From an uncultured Pseudomonas sp. (GTDB lineage: Bacteria; Pseudomonadota; Gammaproteobacteria; Pseudomonadales; Pseudomonadaceae), in assembly GCF_913777995.1 (NCBI RefSeq), contig NZ_CAJYVE010000013.1, positions 1 through 64,000 of the forward strand: a stretch of 64,000 nucleotides of DNA. The letters are read 5' to 3'. The notes beneath the pieces are model-generated. The model searched no databases. It was given only the letters and a program-made list of their open reading frames with translations, and was not told where the DNA came from. Position numbers and translations under genes: made by a program. Shown here in pieces: positions 22,861 through 28,828 of the stretch. The stretch's first letter is position 1, and each line of letters opens with the position of its first letter.

Positions 22861-22949
22861 CACAGTAAACCTCCTTACCCAGTCACATCGGAAAAAGGTA
22901 GTTCAGATATGCGAGCGGCTTACGACCGCTAGCCTACTGGTCAACAAGA

Positions 22950-22975
22950 CCTTTCCTGCACCAATACAGGAAAGG
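22950..22975. promoter_or_regulatory. 9-bp inverted repeat upstream of the ynb-like operon
   Basis: CCTTTCCTG and CAGGAAAGG are perfectly complementary with an 8-base loop, between cfa and the first gene of the lipid operon, 85 bases before its start. It could be an operator or a leader hairpin. No T run follows. Confidence 0.4.
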
Positions 22976-23060
22976 GATCACGTTTTACTTCAACTGCTCC
23001 TGTACGAAACGGCGCCATCCGCCGATGATGCGCCCAGCTACCCTGCAAGGACGAACTGCT

Positions 23061-23678
23061 TTGATTTCTATCTACCAGCTCAAACCACGCTTTCAGAATC
23101 TGCTGCGCCCGTTGGTGCAACGCCTCCATGACCAGGGCTTCACCGCCAACCAGGTCACCTTGGGCGCGTGCCTGGTGTCACTGCTGGTCGGCGCCCTGGT
23201 CGCCGCCGGCATCCCGCACCAATGGATTTTCGTGCTCATTCCGGCGTGGATGATCCTGCGCATGGCGCTCAATGCCATCGACGGCATGCTGGCCCGGGAG
23301 TTCGGCCAGAAGTCGCGCCTGGGCGCCTACCTCAACGAACTGACCGACGTCATCGCCGACAGCGCGCTGTTCCTGCCCTTCGCCCTCTTGCCTGGCGTCA
23401 GCGCGGCACTGGTGGTGCTGGTCACCCTGCTGGCCATCGTCAGCGAATACGCCGGTGTGCTCGGCCCGATGATCGGCGCGTCACGCCGCTACGACGGGCC
23501 GATGGGCAAAAGCGACCGCGCCTTCGTCTTCGGCGTCCTGGGCGCAGGCGTGGCCTGCGGAATATTGGCGCCGTTGTGGATAAATATCCTCCTCGCCGTG
23601 GTCACAGGCCTGCTGATCTACACCGTGGTCAACCGGGTGCGCCAGGGACTAGCGGAAGACAGCGGATCCGCCCAGTAA
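23061..23678 (+). CDS. CDP-alcohol phosphatidyltransferase family protein, YnbA-like
   Basis: This 205-residue integral membrane protein has about six hydrophobic segments. It belongs to the family that swaps the CMP of CDP-diacylglycerol for an alcohol. Its signature reads NAIDGMLAR...GAYLNELTD: the canonical DxxDGxxARx8GxxxDxxxD has Asn71 and Asn92 in place of two Asp, keeping Asp74, Gly75, Ala78, Arg79, Gly88 and Asp96. I recall the same substitutions in E. coli YnbA. The start is a TTG at 23061 with AAGGA nine bases upstream; an ATG at 23025 is in frame but less likely. It is the first gene of a six-gene operon. Confidence 0.85.
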   Translation: MISIYQLKPRFQNLLRPLVQRLHDQGFTANQVTLGACLVSLLVGALVAAGIPHQWIFVLIPAWMILRMALNAIDGMLAREFGQKSRLGAYLNELTDVIADSALFLPFALLPGVSAALVVLVTLLAIVSEYAGVLGPMIGASRRYDGPMGKSDRAFVFGVLGAGVACGILAPLWINILLAVVTGLLIYTVVNRVRQGLAEDSGSAQ

Positions 23679-23722
23679 ATTCTCCCCGGTTCGATGAAAT
23701 CTTGTTGGCATAAGGAGTTCGC

Positions 23723-25480
23723 ATGCGCGACGTGATTGCTCTGCATTTCGCCACCCACGACGGTGTCGAGCTGTTCTATCGGCACTGGCCCGCCATGGGT
23801 CAGGCGCCGGGCAAGACGCGCCAGGCCATCGTGCTGCTGCACCGCGGCCACGAGCACTCCGGACGTATCGCCCACCTGGTCGAAGAACTCGACCTGCCGG
23901 GCTTCGATTTCTTCGCCTGGGACGCGCGGGGCCACGGCCAGTCGCCAGGCGCCCGCGGCGACAGCCCGAGCTTTGCGACCACGGTGCGCGACCTGCAGAC
24001 CTTCATCGAGCACATCGGTGCCAGCCATGGCGTCGAGGCCGGCAACATCGCGGTGGTGGCGCAGAGCGTTGGCGCGGTGGTCGCCGCCACCTGGGCCCAT
24101 GACTATGCGCCCAGAATACGCGCCATGGTGCTCGCCTCCCCGGCGTTCAAGGTCAAGCTCTACGTGCCCTTCGCTCGCCAGGGCCTGGCGCTGCTGCGTC
24201 GTCTGAAGGGCAATTTCTTCGTCAACAGCTATGTGAAATCGCGCCTGCTGACCCACGACCGGCATCGCCAGGTGAGCTACGACAGCGACCCGCTGATCGC
24301 CAAGGCGATTTCGGTCAACGTGCTGCTGGGCCTGTACGAAGCCGCCGAACGGGTGGTGGCCGATGCCCAGGCCATCCAGGTGCCGACCCAGTTGCTGATT
24401 TCCGGCGCGGACTTCGTGGTCCACCGTAAGCCGCAGGAGCAGTTCTTCGAACGCCTGGGCAGCCTGCACAAAGAGCAGCACATCTTGCCGGGCTTCTTCC
24501 ACGACACCTTGGGCGAGCGCGACCGTGAGCAGGCTCTGAGCCGTATCCGTCGTTTCGTCCTGCACGCCTTCGAGCAACCCGTACAGCGCCCTGCCCTGCT
24601 GGACGCCGACCGGGTCGGTGCGATCTGCGCCGAGGCCGAAGCCCTCGCCGCACCCTTGCCGCGCAACTCGGCGCGTGACCTGTACTGGCGCCTGACCCGA
24701 GCCAGCATGCGCCTGGGCAGTTCATTGTCTGCAGGGGTGAAGCTGGGCTTCGATACCGGCTTCGACTCCGGCAGCACCCTGGACTACGTGTACCGCAACC
24801 AGCCCACCGGACGCGGCGGCCTGGGCCGACTGATCGACCGCAATTACCTGGAGTCGATCGGCTGGCGCGGCATTCGCCAGCGCAAGGTGAACATCGAAGA
24901 GCTGCTGCGCCTGGCCATGCAGCGCCTGCGCGACGCCCAGCGCCCAGTGCGCATCGTCGACATCGCCGCCGGCCACGGGCGCTACATCCTCGAATCGCTC
25001 AAGGGCGTCGAACCGCTGCCCGAGTCGATCCTGCTGCGCGACTACAGCGACCTCAACGTTCAGCAGGGCAGCGCGTTGATCGAACAGCTGGACCTCGACG
25101 AGATTGCCCGCTTCATCAAGGCCGACGCCTTCGACCGTGACAACCTCGCCGCCCTCGACCCCAAGCCGACCCTGGCCGTGGTTTCCGGCCTCTACGAACT
25201 GTTCGCCAGCAACCGCATGGTCGGCGACTCGCTGGCGGGCCTGGCCGCCGCCGTGGAACCGGGTGGCTACCTGGTCTACACCGGGCAGCCTTGGCACCCG
25301 CAACTGGAGCTGATCGCCCGTGCCCTGACCAGCCATCGCGGCGGCCAGGCCTGGGTGATGCGCCGTCGCAGCCAGGCCGAGATGGACCAACTGGTGGAAG
25401 CGGCAGGCTTTCGCAAGATCACCCAGCGCATCGACGAATGGGGGATCTTCAGCGTGTCGCTCGCGCAGCGTCTGCCGTGA
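23723..25480 (+). CDS. fused alpha/beta hydrolase and SAM methyltransferase, YnbC-like
   Basis: This 585-residue soluble protein has two domains. Residues 1-285 are a lysophospholipase-like alpha/beta hydrolase with HRGHEHSGR (oxyanion region), nucleophile Ser115 in AQSVG (first Gly of GxSxG is Ala), Asp230 and His260. Residues about 370-585 form a class I methyltransferase with the glycine-rich VDIAAGHGRY (412-421). The same fusion is known in E. coli YnbC. It follows YnbA by 44 bases with TAAGGAG before the ATG and overlaps the next gene by GTGA. Likely role: deacylation and methylation of a lipid or lipid head group made by the operon. Confidence 0.85.
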   Translation: MRDVIALHFATHDGVELFYRHWPAMGQAPGKTRQAIVLLHRGHEHSGRIAHLVEELDLPGFDFFAWDARGHGQSPGARGDSPSFATTVRDLQTFIEHIGASHGVEAGNIAVVAQSVGAVVAATWAHDYAPRIRAMVLASPAFKVKLYVPFARQGLALLRRLKGNFFVNSYVKSRLLTHDRHRQVSYDSDPLIAKAISVNVLLGLYEAAERVVADAQAIQVPTQLLISGADFVVHRKPQEQFFERLGSLHKEQHILPGFFHDTLGERDREQALSRIRRFVLHAFEQPVQRPALLDADRVGAICAEAEALAAPLPRNSARDLYWRLTRASMRLGSSLSAGVKLGFDTGFDSGSTLDYVYRNQPTGRGGLGRLIDRNYLESIGWRGIRQRKVNIEELLRLAMQRLRDAQRPVRIVDIAAGHGRYILESLKGVEPLPESILLRDYSDLNVQQGSALIEQLDLDEIARFIKADAFDRDNLAALDPKPTLAVVSGLYELFASNRMVGDSLAGLAAAVEPGGYLVYTGQPWHPQLELIARALTSHRGGQAWVMRRRSQAEMDQLVEAAGFRKITQRIDEWGIFSVSLAQRLP

Positions 25481-26823
25481 GCCCGGCCCGCGAACCCGGC
25501 CTATGGAAAAGGGCCGTCGTCTGGCTGCTGTTGCTGGCGCCGTTCTTCTTTGGCAGCTATGGCTTCGCCACCTGGTACACGGCGCAGCGCAGCGACGTCG
25601 GCAGCCTGGTATTCGCCTGGGAAAGCCATATGCCGTTCTGGGCCTGGACCATCGTGCCGTACTGGTCCATCGACCTGCTCTACGGTTTTTCGCTGCTCGC
25701 CTGTCTGACCCGCCGCCAACTGGATACCCACGCCCTGCGCCTGTTCAGCGCGCAACTGCTGGCGGTCTCGTGCTTCCTGCTCTGGCCGTTGCGCTTCACC
25801 TTCCAGCGCCCGGACATGGACGGCCTGTTCGGCTGGCTGTTCGACGTGCTGGCCGGCTTCGACAAGCCGTTCAATCAGGCACCCTCATTGCACATCGCCC
25901 TGCTGGTGATTCTCTGGGTGTGCTACGAGCGCTACCTGCGAGTTTTCCATAGGGCCTGGCGCTGGCTGCTGCATGGCTGGTTCGCGTTGATCGGCCTGTC
26001 GGTGCTGACCACCTGGCAACACCATTTCATCGACGTGCCCACCGGTGCGTTGGCCGGCTGGTTCTGCGTGTGGCTGTGGCCCGACCAGGGCCGCAGCCCC
26101 CTGCTGAGCATGTGCCTGGCCCGCGATGCGGCACGCTGGCGACTCGCCGGCACCTACCTGCTGGGCGCCAGCGGACTCGGCGCCACGGGCCTGGCGCTGG
26201 GCGGTGCCGGCCTGTGGCTGCTGTGGCCGGCCTTGTCGTTGTCGATGGTGGGGCTCAACTACCTGCTGTTCGGTGCCCAGGGCTTCCAGAAGCGCGAGGA
26301 CGGCCAGTTATCCCCCGCGGTTCGCTGGCTGCTGGCGCCTTACCTGCTCTGTGCCTGGATCAATTCACGGCTGTGGACAAGAAAACGGCCGGCCCCCGAC
26401 CGGGTTGTGGACAACCTCTGGTTGGGTCGCCTGCCCGCTGCGCGAGAGCTGCAACCCTTCGCCGCCATTGTGGATATCTGTGCCGAATTGCCCGTGAGGC
26501 CGGGGCCACGCGTTTATCACCGCCTGGCTCAGCTCGATCTGCTGGCCCCAGACGCCGGGCAATGCCTGGCGGCCGCTCAGGCCATCGAAGCCGCCCGCCA
26601 TGCCGGCGCGACTCTGGTGTGCTGCGCGCTGGGCTATTCACGCAGCGCCACCGCCGTCGCGGCCTGGCTGCTGTATACCCGGCGCGCCGACACTGTGGAT
26701 AACGCCGTGGCGCAGGTTCGCCAGGCGCGTCCGGGCGTGGTCCTCAAGGCCCCGCACCTGCGCGCCCTGCACGCCATGCTGGGCGCGTGCAGCCAGGCAG
26801 CGGAGGTTTCCCATGCACCCTGA
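25477..26823 (+). CDS. fused PAP2-like and dual-specificity phosphatase membrane protein, YnbD-like
   Basis: This 448-residue protein starts at a GTG overlapping the upstream stop as GTGA. Residues 1-275 hold about eight hydrophobic segments with PAP2/inositol-phosphotransferase-like motifs RPDMDG, PSLH (136-139) and HHFIDV (His183, Asp186). The soluble C-terminus (about 310-448) is a dual-specificity phosphatase with the CX5R loop CALGYSRS (Cys383, Arg389). This pairing is the hallmark of YnbD. PTPMT1, a related phosphatase, removes phosphate from phosphatidylglycerophosphate, so dephosphorylation of the YnbA product is a reasonable inference. Confidence 0.85.
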   Translation: MSPAREPGLWKRAVVWLLLLAPFFFGSYGFATWYTAQRSDVGSLVFAWESHMPFWAWTIVPYWSIDLLYGFSLLACLTRRQLDTHALRLFSAQLLAVSCFLLWPLRFTFQRPDMDGLFGWLFDVLAGFDKPFNQAPSLHIALLVILWVCYERYLRVFHRAWRWLLHGWFALIGLSVLTTWQHHFIDVPTGALAGWFCVWLWPDQGRSPLLSMCLARDAARWRLAGTYLLGASGLGATGLALGGAGLWLLWPALSLSMVGLNYLLFGAQGFQKREDGQLSPAVRWLLAPYLLCAWINSRLWTRKRPAPDRVVDNLWLGRLPAARELQPFAAIVDICAELPVRPGPRVYHRLAQLDLLAPDAGQCLAAAQAIEAARHAGATLVCCALGYSRSATAVAAWLLYTRRADTVDNAVAQVRQARPGVVLKAPHLRALHAMLGACSQAAEVSHAP

Positions 26824-27709
26824 CATGCACCTGCACATCATTGCCGGCCTGCTGCGTCGCGGCCATGCCCTCGATCAGTTGTCCACAGGGCTGACCCTGC
26901 TCAGCGTGGTGCTGGGTCTTGTCCCCCTGTGGATAAACACACCCGCCCTGCCCGTTGCAATGCTGGCGGCCTGCCTGATGCTGCTCGGACTTGTGGAAAA
27001 GTACTACGCACTGCGCGTGGCGTTTGACGCCGAGCTGTTCCAGACCCTGGCCAGCGACACCACGCACCTGACGGCAAACACCCGGGCACTGGACCAGGCG
27101 CTGACCGGCCTGGGCCTGCAACCGGCGGGCAAGGCCGGCCGCCCCTGGGCCGAACGCAGTCAGGGCGCGTTGAAGCTGTTGCGCCAACAGGTGCTGTTCG
27201 TGGCCCTGCAGTGTGTGCTGCTGTTGGGCACCTTGCTGATTTACCCATGGCTCGCCATGTTCCATTGAAGGAAATCCCATGCTCGAATCCCTGGTCGCCT
27301 CATTGATCACCGCCGGCGCACGCAGCGTGACCGGCGCCCGCAGCCTGTGGCTGGGCTGTACCCCCCAGGCCACGCAGCGCATCTACTTCGCCAACCACAC
27401 CAGCCACGGTGACTTCGTGCTGCTCTGGGCCTCGCTGCCGCGTGAGCTGCGCCGTTTCACCCGTCCGGTGGCGGGTGCCGACTACTGGCTGCACGGCAGG
27501 CTGCGCCCTTACATCATCAACCGGGTGTTCCATGGCGTACTGGTCGACCGTACCCGCAAGGACGAACAGGCCAACCCGCTGCAACCGATGCTCGATGCCC
27601 TGGGGCTGGGTTATTCACTGATCATCTTCCCGGAAGGCACACGCAACCCCGACGAAGGCCTGCTGCCGTTCAAGAGCGGCATCTACCACCTGGCGAAAAG
27701 TTATCCACA
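26372..27709. other. cluster of DnaA-box-like 9-mers inside coding DNA
   Basis: Within 1.34 kb there are three exact TTATCCACA boxes (26694-26702 and 26928-26936 on the minus strand, 27701-27709 on the plus strand) and three TTGTCCACA near-matches (26372-26380, 26406-26414, 26879-26887). A further exact box is at 23575-23583. All lie in the ynb-like operon. Binding is inferred from the motif only. Confidence 0.5.
26813..27268 (+). CDS. small membrane protein of the ynb-like operon, unknown function
   Basis: This 151-residue protein has three hydrophobic segments (about 22-37, 41-60 and 122-148), with a hydrophilic loop between the second and third. I recognise no family. The ATG at 26813 has CGGAGG eight bases upstream and overlaps the end of the YnbD-like gene by 11 bases, so it is part of the operon. 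By position it could be a partner subunit of one of the membrane enzymes. Confidence 0.75.
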   Translation: MHPDMHLHIIAGLLRRGHALDQLSTGLTLLSVVLGLVPLWINTPALPVAMLAACLMLLGLVEKYYALRVAFDAELFQTLASDTTHLTANTRALDQALTGLGLQPAGKAGRPWAERSQGALKLLRQQVLFVALQCVLLLGTLLIYPWLAMFH

Positions 27710-27896
27710 AGCCGAGCTGGTGCCGGTGTGGATTTCCAACCTCAACCGGGTCATGCCCAAGGGCCGCATGCTGCCCCTGCCCCTGCTGTGCACCACCAGC
27801 TTCGGCGCGCCGCTGCAACTGGGTGAAGACGAAAGCAAAGAGCAATTCCTCGCCCGCAGCCGTGACGCGCTGCTGGCCCTGGCGGCGGAGCAGTAA
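27279..27896 (+). CDS. PlsC-like 1-acylglycerol-3-phosphate acyltransferase
   Basis: This 205-residue protein has the acyltransferase motif I NHTSHGD (His40, Asp45 of HX4D), motif III FPEGTRN (117-123), LPFKSGIYHLA and VPVWISNLNR as motif IV. It is predicted to esterify lysophosphatidic acid or a related lysolipid at the inner membrane. It is shorter than the housekeeping PlsC and lacks an obvious long membrane anchor. It sits ten bases after the 151-residue membrane protein and two bases before the CdsA-like gene. It would supply the phosphatidate for that enzyme. Confidence 0.87.
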   Translation: MLESLVASLITAGARSVTGARSLWLGCTPQATQRIYFANHTSHGDFVLLWASLPRELRRFTRPVAGADYWLHGRLRPYIINRVFHGVLVDRTRKDEQANPLQPMLDALGLGYSLIIFPEGTRNPDEGLLPFKSGIYHLAKSYPQAELVPVWISNLNRVMPKGRMLPLPLLCTTSFGAPLQLGEDESKEQFLARSRDALLALAAEQ

Positions 27897-27898
27897 CG

Positions 27899-28828
27899 AT
27901 GGAAAACCAGACTCAACTGTTGTTCATGGGCATCGGCGTCATCCTGCTGCTGGCCTCGGTGATCGGCCATGTGCTCAAGCTCAAGGCACGCGGCCCGCAC
28001 GCGGTGATCGACAACCTCAACGCGCGCATCCACGCCTGGTGGGTGATGGTCATCGTCATCGGCATCGCCTTCTGGCTGGGCTATGGCGCCGTGATCCTGC
28101 TGTTCTACGCGGTGTCGTTCTATGCCCTGCGCGAATTTCTCACCCTGACCCCCACGCGGCGCAGCGACTACCCGGCGCTGGTGGCCGCGTTCTACCTGGC
28201 CCTGCCCCTGCAGTACGTGCTGATCGCCATCGACTGGTACGGCCTGTACTCGATCTTCATCCCGGTCTATGTGTTCCTGCTGCTGCCGATCCTCGCCTCG
28301 CTGGGCGGCGACAGCCAACACTTCCTGGAGCGTGCCTCCAAGGTGCAGTGGGGACTGATGATCGCGGTGTTCTGTGTGTCGTACGTACCCGCCTTGCTGA
28401 CCCTGGACATCGTCGGCTATGAAGGCCGCAACCTGCTGCTGATCGCCTTCCTGGTCATCGTGGTGCAGCTGTCGGACGTGCTGCAGTACGTGTGCGGCAA
28501 GCTGTTCGGCAAACGCAAGATCGCCCCTAACCTCTCCCCCTCCAAGACCGTTGAGGGCTTCGTTGGCGGCATCCTGCTGGCTTCGATGATCGGTGCCGGG
28601 CTGTGGTGGATCACCCCGTTCTCGCCGGTGCAGGCGTTCTTCATCGCCCTGCTGATCAACCTGCTGGGCTTTGCCGGCGGCATCGTGATGTCGGCGATCA
28701 AGCGCGACCGGGGCGTGAAGGACTGGGGCCACATGATCGAAGGCCACGGCGGCATGCTCGACCGCATCGACTCGGTGTGTTTCGCGGCGCCGATCTTCTT
28801 CCACCTGGTGCGTTACTGGTGGACCTGA
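27899..28828 (+). CDS. phosphatidate cytidylyltransferase family protein, CdsA/YnbB-like
   Basis: This 309-residue membrane protein has about eight hydrophobic segments and a full CDS signature near its C-terminus: SAIKRDRGVKDWG, then HGGMLDRIDS (Lys-Arg-x4-Lys-Asp ... His-Gly-Gly-x-x-Asp-Arg-x-Asp), preceded by LSPSKTVEGFVGG. It should convert phosphatidate plus CTP to CDP-diacylglycerol, the substrate of the YnbA-like enzyme. As a second CdsA-type gene it is dedicated to this operon, equivalent to YnbB in E. coli. A terminator follows. Confidence 0.9.
   Translation: MENQTQLLFMGIGVILLLASVIGHVLKLKARGPHAVIDNLNARIHAWWVMVIVIGIAFWLGYGAVILLFYAVSFYALREFLTLTPTRRSDYPALVAAFYLALPLQYVLIAIDWYGLYSIFIPVYVFLLLPILASLGGDSQHFLERASKVQWGLMIAVFCVSYVPALLTLDIVGYEGRNLLLIAFLVIVVQLSDVLQYVCGKLFGKRKIAPNLSPSKTVEGFVGGILLASMIGAGLWWITPFSPVQAFFIALLINLLGFAGGIVMSAIKRDRGVKDWGHMIEGHGGMLDRIDSVCFAAPIFFHLVRYWWT

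What the first reader, a model, noticed from the sequence alone, without database searches (positions are those of the whole stretch)
23061..28828. Six-gene operon encoding an orphan phospholipid pathway (ynb-like)
Seen: six tightly spaced or overlapping plus-strand genes encode a PlsC-like acyltransferase (HX4D, FPEGTR), a CdsA-like enzyme with a full signature, a CDP-alcohol phosphatidyltransferase, a PAP2/dual-specificity phosphatase fusion, an alpha/beta hydrolase/methyltransferase fusion, and a 151-residue membrane protein. Known: four of these match E. coli ynbABCD, whose product is not established as far as I know. Inference: they form a self-contained route from lysophosphatidate through phosphatidate and CDP-diacylglycerol to a phosphatidyl-alcohol phosphate, which is dephosphorylated and then methylated or deacylated.
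Basis: partly seen in the sequence, partly recalled or inferred. Interest (0 to 1): 0.82.

Follow-up and report, generated by a model that had tools for sequence, protein, structure and literature searches.

The report
Arc1 lipid-defence operon with rewired enzyme
This six-gene Pseudomonas operon looks like a gene cluster already known to help bacteria survive membrane-cutting toxins from rivals, and the enzyme at its heart has a consistently altered active site, which gives a handle on the still unknown lipid it makes.

Summary
The six genes are real and in the stated order. Their make-up matches the Gac/Rsm-controlled arc1A-F cluster of P. aeruginosa (PA2541-36), needed under T6SS attack (PMC8926400), with arc1A adding resistance to lipase effectors (PMC12663445). 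So the kind of operon is known; its lipid product is not. Four genes are homologous to E. coli ynbABCD.

New here: (1) The CDP-alcohol phosphotransferase lacks two of four metal aspartates called absolutely conserved: D1 and D3 are Asn, with Arg four residues before D1 and Glu just after D3, in 81 of 81 and 51 of 51 relatives. Of 70 sampled PF01066 proteins 4 show this; all 4 lie beside Arc1-type partners, none of the 36 others with neighbourhood checked does. (2) The operon is two modules: a core trio, found without the cassette in 16 of 17 cassette-less genomes examined, and a cassette whose presence changed at least 3 times.

Best reading: an inducible side line of phospholipid synthesis that helps cells under lipase attack. 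No chemistry was tested.

The parts
23046..23053 (+). CAAGGACG: RsmA/CsrA-like site (CANGGAYG, consensus recalled) overlapping the ribosome-binding site of the first gene
   Evidence: ACANGGA in 51 of 79 relatives' leaders of this gene against 3/79, 0/80, 1/79, 5/78 and 0/78 for the other five genes
23061..23678 (+). CDP-alcohol phosphotransferase (Arc1A/YnbA type), TTG start; signature R67-x3-N71-x2-D74-G ... G88-x3-N92-E93-x2-D96
   Evidence: PF01066; alignment A1; AF2 model pLDDT 83.7, best PDB match PIP synthase 5d91, TM 0.80; signature counts
23723..25480 (+). monoacylglycerol-lipase-like hydrolase fused to a class I methyltransferase (Arc1B/YnbC type)
   Evidence: PF12146 and PF12147; PDB profile best hit monoacylglycerol lipase 6qe2, E 1.2e-19; 56% identical to YnbC
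25477..26823 (+). PAP2-like membrane domain fused to a dual-specificity phosphatase (Arc1C/YnbD type); CX5R intact
   Evidence: PF00782, PAP2 sub-threshold; DSP profile against PDB; LVCCALGYSRS in 79 of 80 and APSLHI in 80 of 80 relatives
26813..27268 (+). 151-residue helical membrane protein (Arc1D type), no known family
   Evidence: no Pfam hit for the window protein; AF2 pLDDT 81.1 with long helices; no PDB fold match at E<=0.001; found in 23 of 119 Pseudomonadaceae genomes, all with the hydrolase/methyltransferase
27279..27896 (+). PlsC-like acyltransferase (Arc1E type), HX4D and FPEGTR
   Evidence: PF01553; motifs
27899..28828 (+). CdsA-like CDP-diacylglycerol synthase (Arc1F/YnbB type)
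   Evidence: PF01148; signature with P to E change

Best explanation
The window carries an Arc1-type antagonism-resistance operon of a Pseudomonas near P. viridiflava. It probably works as an inducible side line of phospholipid synthesis at the inner membrane. Gac/Rsm signalling lifts RsmA control at the first gene (reported for P. aeruginosa; a matching site is seen here, binding not tested). Arc1E makes phosphatidate from lysophosphatidate and Arc1F makes CDP-diacylglycerol (inferred from family and motifs). Arc1A passes the phosphatidyl group to an unknown, probably phosphorylated, alcohol (inferred from fold and from two invariant arginines at or near those that bind inositol phosphate in PIP synthase). 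The cassette Arc1B-C-D then edits the product or clears by-products by hydrolysis, methylation and dephosphorylation (inferred). The result is greater tolerance of phospholipase effectors (reported for arc1A of P. aeruginosa). Arc1A does this with a rebuilt metal site: the two Asp that bridge both metals in a related structure are Asn, with an added Arg and Glu, so a one-metal or Arg-assisted mechanism is likely (inference).
For: Make-up matches the paper's description of PA2536-41: five of six genes of phospholipid metabolism, four like phosphatidylglycerol-synthesis enzymes. Loss of arc1A (in a tssM1 background, lysis assay) raises sensitivity to lipase-armed V. cholerae and A. baylyi; a second deletion in the operon is not additive, so one pathway. 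PA2541 is listed with one RsmA site around the SD; the window has CAAGGACG there. Six-gene order 77/80. Core kept together: CDS on the same strand within 8 kb of 44 of 51 NN-type genes, 7 of the 51 fetched around the cassette. R/N/N/E signature 81/81 and 51/51, and in 4 of 70 sampled, those 4 all beside Arc1-type partners. PIPS-like fold. In CHPT1 D1 and D3 each bridge both Mg.
Against: No sequence of PAO1 PA2541-36 was compared; the match rests on make-up and on the same cluster in another genus of the family. No lipid was measured. In MjPSS any change of the four motif Asp lowers or abolishes activity and D3-to-Asn is not rescued by Mg, though D1-to-Ser partly is, so Arc1A could be catalytically dead. 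arc1A has only an auxiliary role beside arc3A against V. cholerae, and no single B. thailandensis effector mutation relieved the Arc1 defect. PIP-synthase pocket residues K135 and R137 are not kept (my reading). 22 of 79 leaders have no GGA near the start.
Confidence: 0.6

Rival explanations
1. Arc1A is a pseudoenzyme: with both bridging Asp lost it no longer transfers phosphatidyl groups but binds CDP-DAG or scaffolds Arc1E/Arc1F, and the cluster simply boosts CDP-DAG for the housekeeping PgsA and PssA.
For: D1 and D3 both Asn in all 81 and 51 relatives counted; in print, mutation of any motif Asp strongly lowers activity.
Against: D2, D4, K150, R153, R192 and the added R67/E93 are invariant in the 22 sequences of A1, which is unlike a decaying active site; arc1A loss has a phenotype.
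Confidence: 0.2
2. The cluster is an extra phosphatidylglycerol route: G3P is the acceptor and the DSP/PAP2 protein replaces Pgp phosphatases, refilling anionic lipid after attack.
For: The Arc1 authors note four enzymes like those of phosphatidylglycerol synthesis; a DSP that removes the phosphate of PGP is known (PTPMT1, function recalled; profile match 3rgo, E 2.3e-7).
Against: The model resembles PIP synthase (TM 0.80) more than PGP synthase 7drj/7drk (TM 0.37-0.50); NCBIfam pgsA score 24.1 against cut-off 109.1; trio found without the phosphatase.
Confidence: 0.25
3. The CDP-DAG synthase serves glycolipid (MPIase) synthesis, as reported for E. coli YnbB, and defence is indirect.
For: YnbB overproduction raises MPIase; ynbB cannot replace cdsA.
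Against: ynbB deletion does not significantly change MPIase, effect called marginal or auxiliary; does not explain the pairing with the NN-type transferase and PlsC.
Confidence: 0.1
4. The cassette is the defence part and recycles toxic lysolipids (lipase-like domain), while the core is ordinary housekeeping.
For: Hydrolase domain is closest to monoacylglycerol lipases; cassette can sit apart from the core (G151).
Against: arc1A, a core gene, is the one with the published lipase phenotype.
Confidence: 0.15

Closest known systems
arc1A-F (PA2541-36), antagonism resistance cluster 1 of P. aeruginosa (PMC8926400, PMC12663445)
   Same: six genes, five lipid-related and one unknown by the authors' account; Gac/Rsm-linked first gene; the window's six-gene make-up and order recur in another genus of its family
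   Different: different species; cfa and cls upstream and opgD downstream here; no phenotype known for this species; DUF2339 (Arc3A) not found in this 92%-complete genome
E. coli K-12 ynbABCD
   Same: homologues of four genes at 39-57% identity, same R/N/N/E signature in YnbA
   Different: gene order A, CDS, hydrolase/methyltransferase, PAP2/DSP; no PlsC and no 151-aa homologue in that 20-kb stretch
PIP synthase / archaetidylinositol-phosphate synthase (CDP-alcohol phosphotransferases)
   Same: fold (TM 0.80 to 5d91) and best NCBIfam scores
   Different: scores far below cut-offs (45.8 of 170; 69.6 of 180); D1 and D3 are Asn; no Lys/Arg after D4; K135/R137 not kept (my reading)
Housekeeping PgsA/PssA/CdsA/PlsC
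   Same: same enzyme families
   Different: the window copies form a cluster of their own; this genome has two further PF01066 proteins with Asp at D1; CdsA and PlsC paralogues in this genome were not searched for

Membership tests
Arc1 (antagonism resistance cluster 1) | six-gene operon with five lipid-metabolism genes and one unknown | tested here: met
   definition
Arc1 (antagonism resistance cluster 1) | sequence orthology to PA2541-36 | tested here: inconclusive
   PAO1 sequence not held by name; same six-gene cluster in another genus of the family, g151
Arc1 (antagonism resistance cluster 1) | RsmA control at the first gene | tested here: inconclusive
   CANGGAYG at SD in window; ACANGGA in 51/79 leaders against 0-5 of 78-80 for the other genes, but no GGA in 22/79; binding not tested
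Arc1 (antagonism resistance cluster 1) | defence against T6SS or lipase effectors | not testable with these tools
   published for P. aeruginosa only
ynbABCD | homologous CDP-alcohol transferase, CDS, hydrolase/methyltransferase and PAP2/DSP genes | tested here: met
CDP-alcohol phosphotransferase (PF01066) | Pfam match and fold | tested here: met
   29.5 bits, cut-off 22; Foldseek
CDP-alcohol phosphotransferase (PF01066) | signature D1xxD2G..AR..G..D3xxxD4 with eight conserved residues | tested here: not met
   D1 and D3 are Asn; signature as stated. So it is a relative of the family, not a canonical member
PIP synthase | NCBIfam PIPSynth cut-off | tested here: not met
   45.8 against 170 bits
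PGP synthase PgsA | NCBIfam pgsA cut-off | tested here: not met
   24.1 against 109.1 bits
CDP-DAG synthase | Pfam PF01148 | tested here: met
   242 bits
CDP-DAG synthase | full CDS signature (recalled form) | tested here: inconclusive
   one position differs, P to E
MPIase synthesis (YnbB-like) | raises MPIase when overproduced | not testable with these tools
   published for E. coli YnbB

The most novel reading that the evidence does not exclude
Arc1A/YnbA proteins are a separate enzyme class within the CDP-alcohol phosphotransferases that replaced the two-metal site with a one-metal plus arginine site (R67/N71/N92/E93) and make a phospholipid not yet described, which makes membranes resist phospholipase toxins; E. 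coli ynbABCD would then be an unrecognised Arc1 defence cluster.
Probability: 0.25. Interest if true: 0.85.

Novelty: new variant of a known kind. Interest (0 to 1): 0.55.

Why it matters
Arc1 is a published defence cluster whose chemistry I could not find in print, and ynbABCD is a group of poorly understood E. coli genes. Showing that both share an enzyme with the same four-residue departure from a signature called absolutely conserved points to one defined step to test: what Arc1A/YnbA does with CDP-diacylglycerol. The core/cassette split shows which three genes to express first. If the altered site is active, it would change the accepted picture of catalysis in a very large enzyme family; if dead, it would make Arc1 a CDP-DAG supply or binding system.

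Tried and rejected
Inositol-phosphate acceptor as in PIP synthase: fold agrees, but scores are far below cut-off and K135/R137 are not kept (my reading), so not claimed. The pairing of R153 with PIP-synthase R155 is one residue off in the alignment; R192 pairs with R195. Aur1-like transferase reading of the PAP2 domain: PSLH and HHxxD motifs suggested it (recalled), but profile A6 found only two weak phospholipid-phosphatase hits (E 0.27 and 0.32); with E up to 1, PAP2 matched 12 of 12 and PAP2_3 7 of 12 members; left open. 151-aa protein: no family for the window protein, PDB profile best E 0.81, no fold match at E<=0.001. PADLOC: only weak methyltransferase matches of the hydrolase/methyltransferase (E 2.4e-5 and 0.0062), not taken as membership. 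Literature: searches (no paper) listed no paper that I recognised as being on the NN signature or on an Arc1 product; most subscription papers are not held and I read passages, not whole texts. ynbB was reported not necessary for phosphoglyceride-linked ECA (PMC8609368, passages). Single origin of the two NN groups: compatible, but the joining branch has support 33. Own-genome search for DUF2339 found nothing. In one search two motif read-outs (L144, L159) were mis-registered by over-long frames; searches show the N..N motif in both.
Full report
WHAT IS THERE. The window lies in contig 13 of a 4.76-Mb, 54-contig assembly, 92% complete. The closest named relative found by the hydrolase/methyltransferase is a P. 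viridiflava isolate at 87% (records of the window's own genome may have been left out). Six plus-strand genes run from 23061 to 28828 with gaps of +44, -4, -11, +10 and +2. Pfam gives CDP-OH_P_transf; Hydrolase_4 plus Methyltransf_20; DSPc with a sub-threshold PAP2; nothing; Acyltransferase; CTP_transf_1. Upstream lie a divergent CFA-synthase-like gene and a PLD-family (cardiolipin-synthase-like) gene, and downstream an MdoG/OpgD-like gene; these flanks are found beside the operon in only some relatives and I do not count them as parts.

CONSERVATION. All six genes stand in the same order in 77 of 80; the remaining three (L036, L038, L063) are cut by contig ends. E. coli K-12 ynbA, ynbB, ynbC and ynbD match at 45, 39, 57 and 39% in best segments; no PlsC or 151-aa homologue was found in that 20-kb stretch.

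WHAT IS ALREADY KNOWN. The eLife 2022 paper PMC8926400 (abstract, sections 5, 6 and 7 and passages read) names PA2541-36 of P. aeruginosa arc1A-F. It is a Gac/Rsm-controlled operon found by Tn-seq as needed to survive T6SS attack by B. thailandensis; five of six genes are predicted to act in phospholipid metabolism, four resembling enzymes of phosphatidylglycerol synthesis. No single B. thailandensis effector mutation relieved the Arc1 defect. PMC12663445 (2025, passages) reports that loss of arc1A raises sensitivity to lipase-armed V. cholerae (TseL) and A. baylyi (Tle1), with an auxiliary role beside arc3A. PMC4066749 (one passage) lists PA2541 with a single RsmA site around the SD. For E. 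coli, PMC6362211 (passages) reports that YnbB overproduction raises the glycolipid MPIase, that ynbB cannot replace cdsA, and that its deletion does not significantly change MPIase. PMC12871917 (passages) cites activation of ynbA by BglJ-RcsB. I therefore file the window operon as an Arc1-type cluster. I did not have PAO1 sequence by name; the match is by gene make-up plus the same cluster in another genus of the family (g151, unnamed). That PAO1's gene order is the same is recalled, not tested.

REGULATORY SITE. CAAGGACG at 23046-23053 overlaps the SD of the first gene and fits the RsmA/CsrA consensus CANGGAYG (recalled). Within about 27 nt upstream of the start, ACANGGA occurs in 51 of 79 relatives' leaders for this gene, against 3/79, 0/80, 1/79, 5/78 and 0/78 for the other five genes in order (window and E. 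coli not counted). The stricter CANGGAYG occurs in only 10 of 81 leaders, window included. Also against: 22 of 79 leaders have no GGA there, the motif overlaps an SD, and relatedness inflates the count. In five loci of genus g151 (L170-L174) the site reads GAGAAGGA, in two of them (L170, L173) as a possible GAGA/UCUC stem with AGGA in the loop (my reading).

TWO MODULES. In 119 Pseudomonadaceae genomes the CDP-alcohol transferase occurs in 43, the hydrolase/methyltransferase in 24, all among those 43, and the 151-aa protein in 23, all among those 24; the PAP2/DSP protein was not searched on its own. Nineteen genomes have the transferase without the hydrolase/methyltransferase. I fetched loci of 17 of these 19 (not G219 and G235), plus G151 and G252: 20 loci. 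In 18 of the 20 PlsC and CDS homologues lie within 8 kb of the transferase on the same strand; the exceptions are L219 (G144) and a second, shorter copy in G159 (L222). So 16 of 17 cassette-less genomes examined carry the bare trio. In G151 the trio is on contig 24 and the cassette (hydrolase/methyltransferase, PAP2/DSP, 151-aa) on contig 44. In G252 trio and hydrolase/methyltransferase are also on different contigs. On a tree of CDS plus PlsC (38 rows that I chose: 18 full, 18 core-only, 2 outgroup rows, one of them on a very long branch), cassette presence needs 4 changes, at least 3 forced by well-supported branches; this count does not depend on the root. For example P. chengduensis (full) sits with two core-only genomes (95/99). 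Outside the family, a class-wide sample gave a match to the transferase profile in 39 of 369 genomes, 19 of them above 120 bits with this genome counted, while the methyltransferase family matched in 3 of 143, two of these weakly. There the modules mix: trio alone, trio plus cassette in other orders, or no plsC as in E. coli. A pathway in which the phosphatase and methyltransferase are required steps does not fit these genomes, unless enzymes elsewhere stand in.

A REWIRED ACTIVE SITE. The family signature is D1xxD2G..AR..G..D3xxxD4, described as eight absolutely conserved residues (PMC4634129, passages; also PMC6506517, passages). In the window D1 is N71 and D3 is N92. The same holds in 81 of 81 proteins (window, 79 Pseudomonas loci, YnbA; L038 lacks the gene at a contig end). 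All 81 also carry Arg four residues before N71 and Glu directly after N92. Some of these genomes may be the same species as named ones. The 51 include a second group (L161-L165, L167, L181) only distantly like the first, yet next to PlsC and CDS homologues in 5 of 7 cases; L162 shows none and L181 is cut by a contig end.

CONTROL. A search for PF01066 proteins in 50 genomes across the phylum gave 144 matches by my count. I examined 70: the 30 best scoring, the 19 weakest apart from the window's own, one more of this genome, and 20 that I picked from the rest. 66 have Asp at D1: 57 are D-D-D-D and 9 have other letters at the D3/D4 positions in the fixed spacing I used; 4 are N-D-N-D; none has Asn at only one of D1 and D3. 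A separate count found 58 loci with a strict four-Asp motif; none has Arg at D1-4 or Glu at D3+1. Neighbourhoods were fetched for 40 of the 70: all 4 NN-type genes lie next to Arc1-type partners (L279 and L284 PlsC and CDS; L282 hydrolase/methyltransferase, PAP2/DSP, 151-aa and PlsC; L281 hydrolase/methyltransferase and PAP2/DSP, with no PlsC or CDS in the stretch) and 0 of 36 others do (Fisher p 1.1e-5, although L281 and L284 are from one genome). Across the 51 NN loci, CDS lies on the same strand within 8 kb in 44, on the other strand in 1 (L154), and was not found in 6 (L148, L149, L162, L181, L219, L222); 7 of the 51 had been fetched around the cassette. The double Asn with Arg and Glu is therefore a marker of this kind of cluster. 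That no mixed N/D form turned up suggests the changes go together.

WHAT IT MAY MEAN. In a cholinephosphotransferase structure the D1 and D3 carboxylates each bridge both Mg ions, and changing any of the four Asp to Ala leaves under 20% activity (PMC10182977, passages). In MjPSS any change of these residues reduces or abolishes activity; D3-to-Asn is not rescued by Mg, while D1-to-Ser and D4-to-Asn partly are (PMC8633023, passages). So the residues expected to hold a two-metal site are replaced here. Yet D2, D4, K150, R153 and R192 are invariant among 22 aligned sequences, and arc1A has a phenotype in P. aeruginosa. I take this as a rebuilt rather than a dead site, with R67 perhaps standing in for one metal; this is inference. 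The AF2 model (pLDDT 83.7) matches PIP synthase best (TM 0.80 to 5d91) and PGP synthase weakly (0.37-0.50). R192 and, one position off, R153 align with the inositol-phosphate-binding R195 and R155 of M. tuberculosis PIP synthase (my reading; roles). The acceptor is therefore probably a phosphorylated alcohol, identity unknown.

CASSETTE ENZYMES. The hydrolase domain is closest to monoacylglycerol lipases among solved structures (E 1.2e-19); S115, D230 and H260 are invariant and are my assignment of the triad. The methyltransferase motif IVDIAAGHGR is kept in 76 of 80 loci, with 3 more near-identical. The phosphatase has the CX5R loop in 79 of 80 and matches other protein-tyrosine phosphatases best (5z5b, 1.2e-13), PTPMT1 at 2.3e-7. 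The 151-aa protein is helical with no relative found.

VERDICT. The operon is real and conserved, and belongs with a published defence cluster whose product I could not find in print. What I add is the marker signature, the module structure with repeated switching, and the link between Arc1-type clusters and ynbABCD through the same signature. These make the open question, what Arc1A makes, directly testable.

Noticed in passing
window 22863-23061: The divergent CFA-synthase-like start lies 198 bases from the arc1A-like start here and 225 in L004, but 2.2-7.4 kb away in the 13 other loci that I compared, so a segment was lost or gained.
   Followed up: partly
whole genome G000: No DUF2339 (Arc3A-type) protein was found in this genome (92% complete), so Arc1 may be present without Arc3.
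   Followed up: no
L176 (G171 contig 1, 958000-974000): A second, 35% identical hydrolase/methyltransferase fusion sits in a different neighbourhood in which none of the other five profiles hit.
   Followed up: no
L118, L119, L126, L191 and matches in G154 and G183: These NN-type CDP-alcohol transferase matches are listed with one stop codon in the matched frame; not examined whether these are broken genes or end effects.
   Followed up: no
window 27899-28828: The CdsA-like signature has Glu instead of Pro before GHGG in 78 of 78 Pseudomonas relatives, while E. coli YnbB and 13 of 21 loci of other genera keep Pro.
   Followed up: partly
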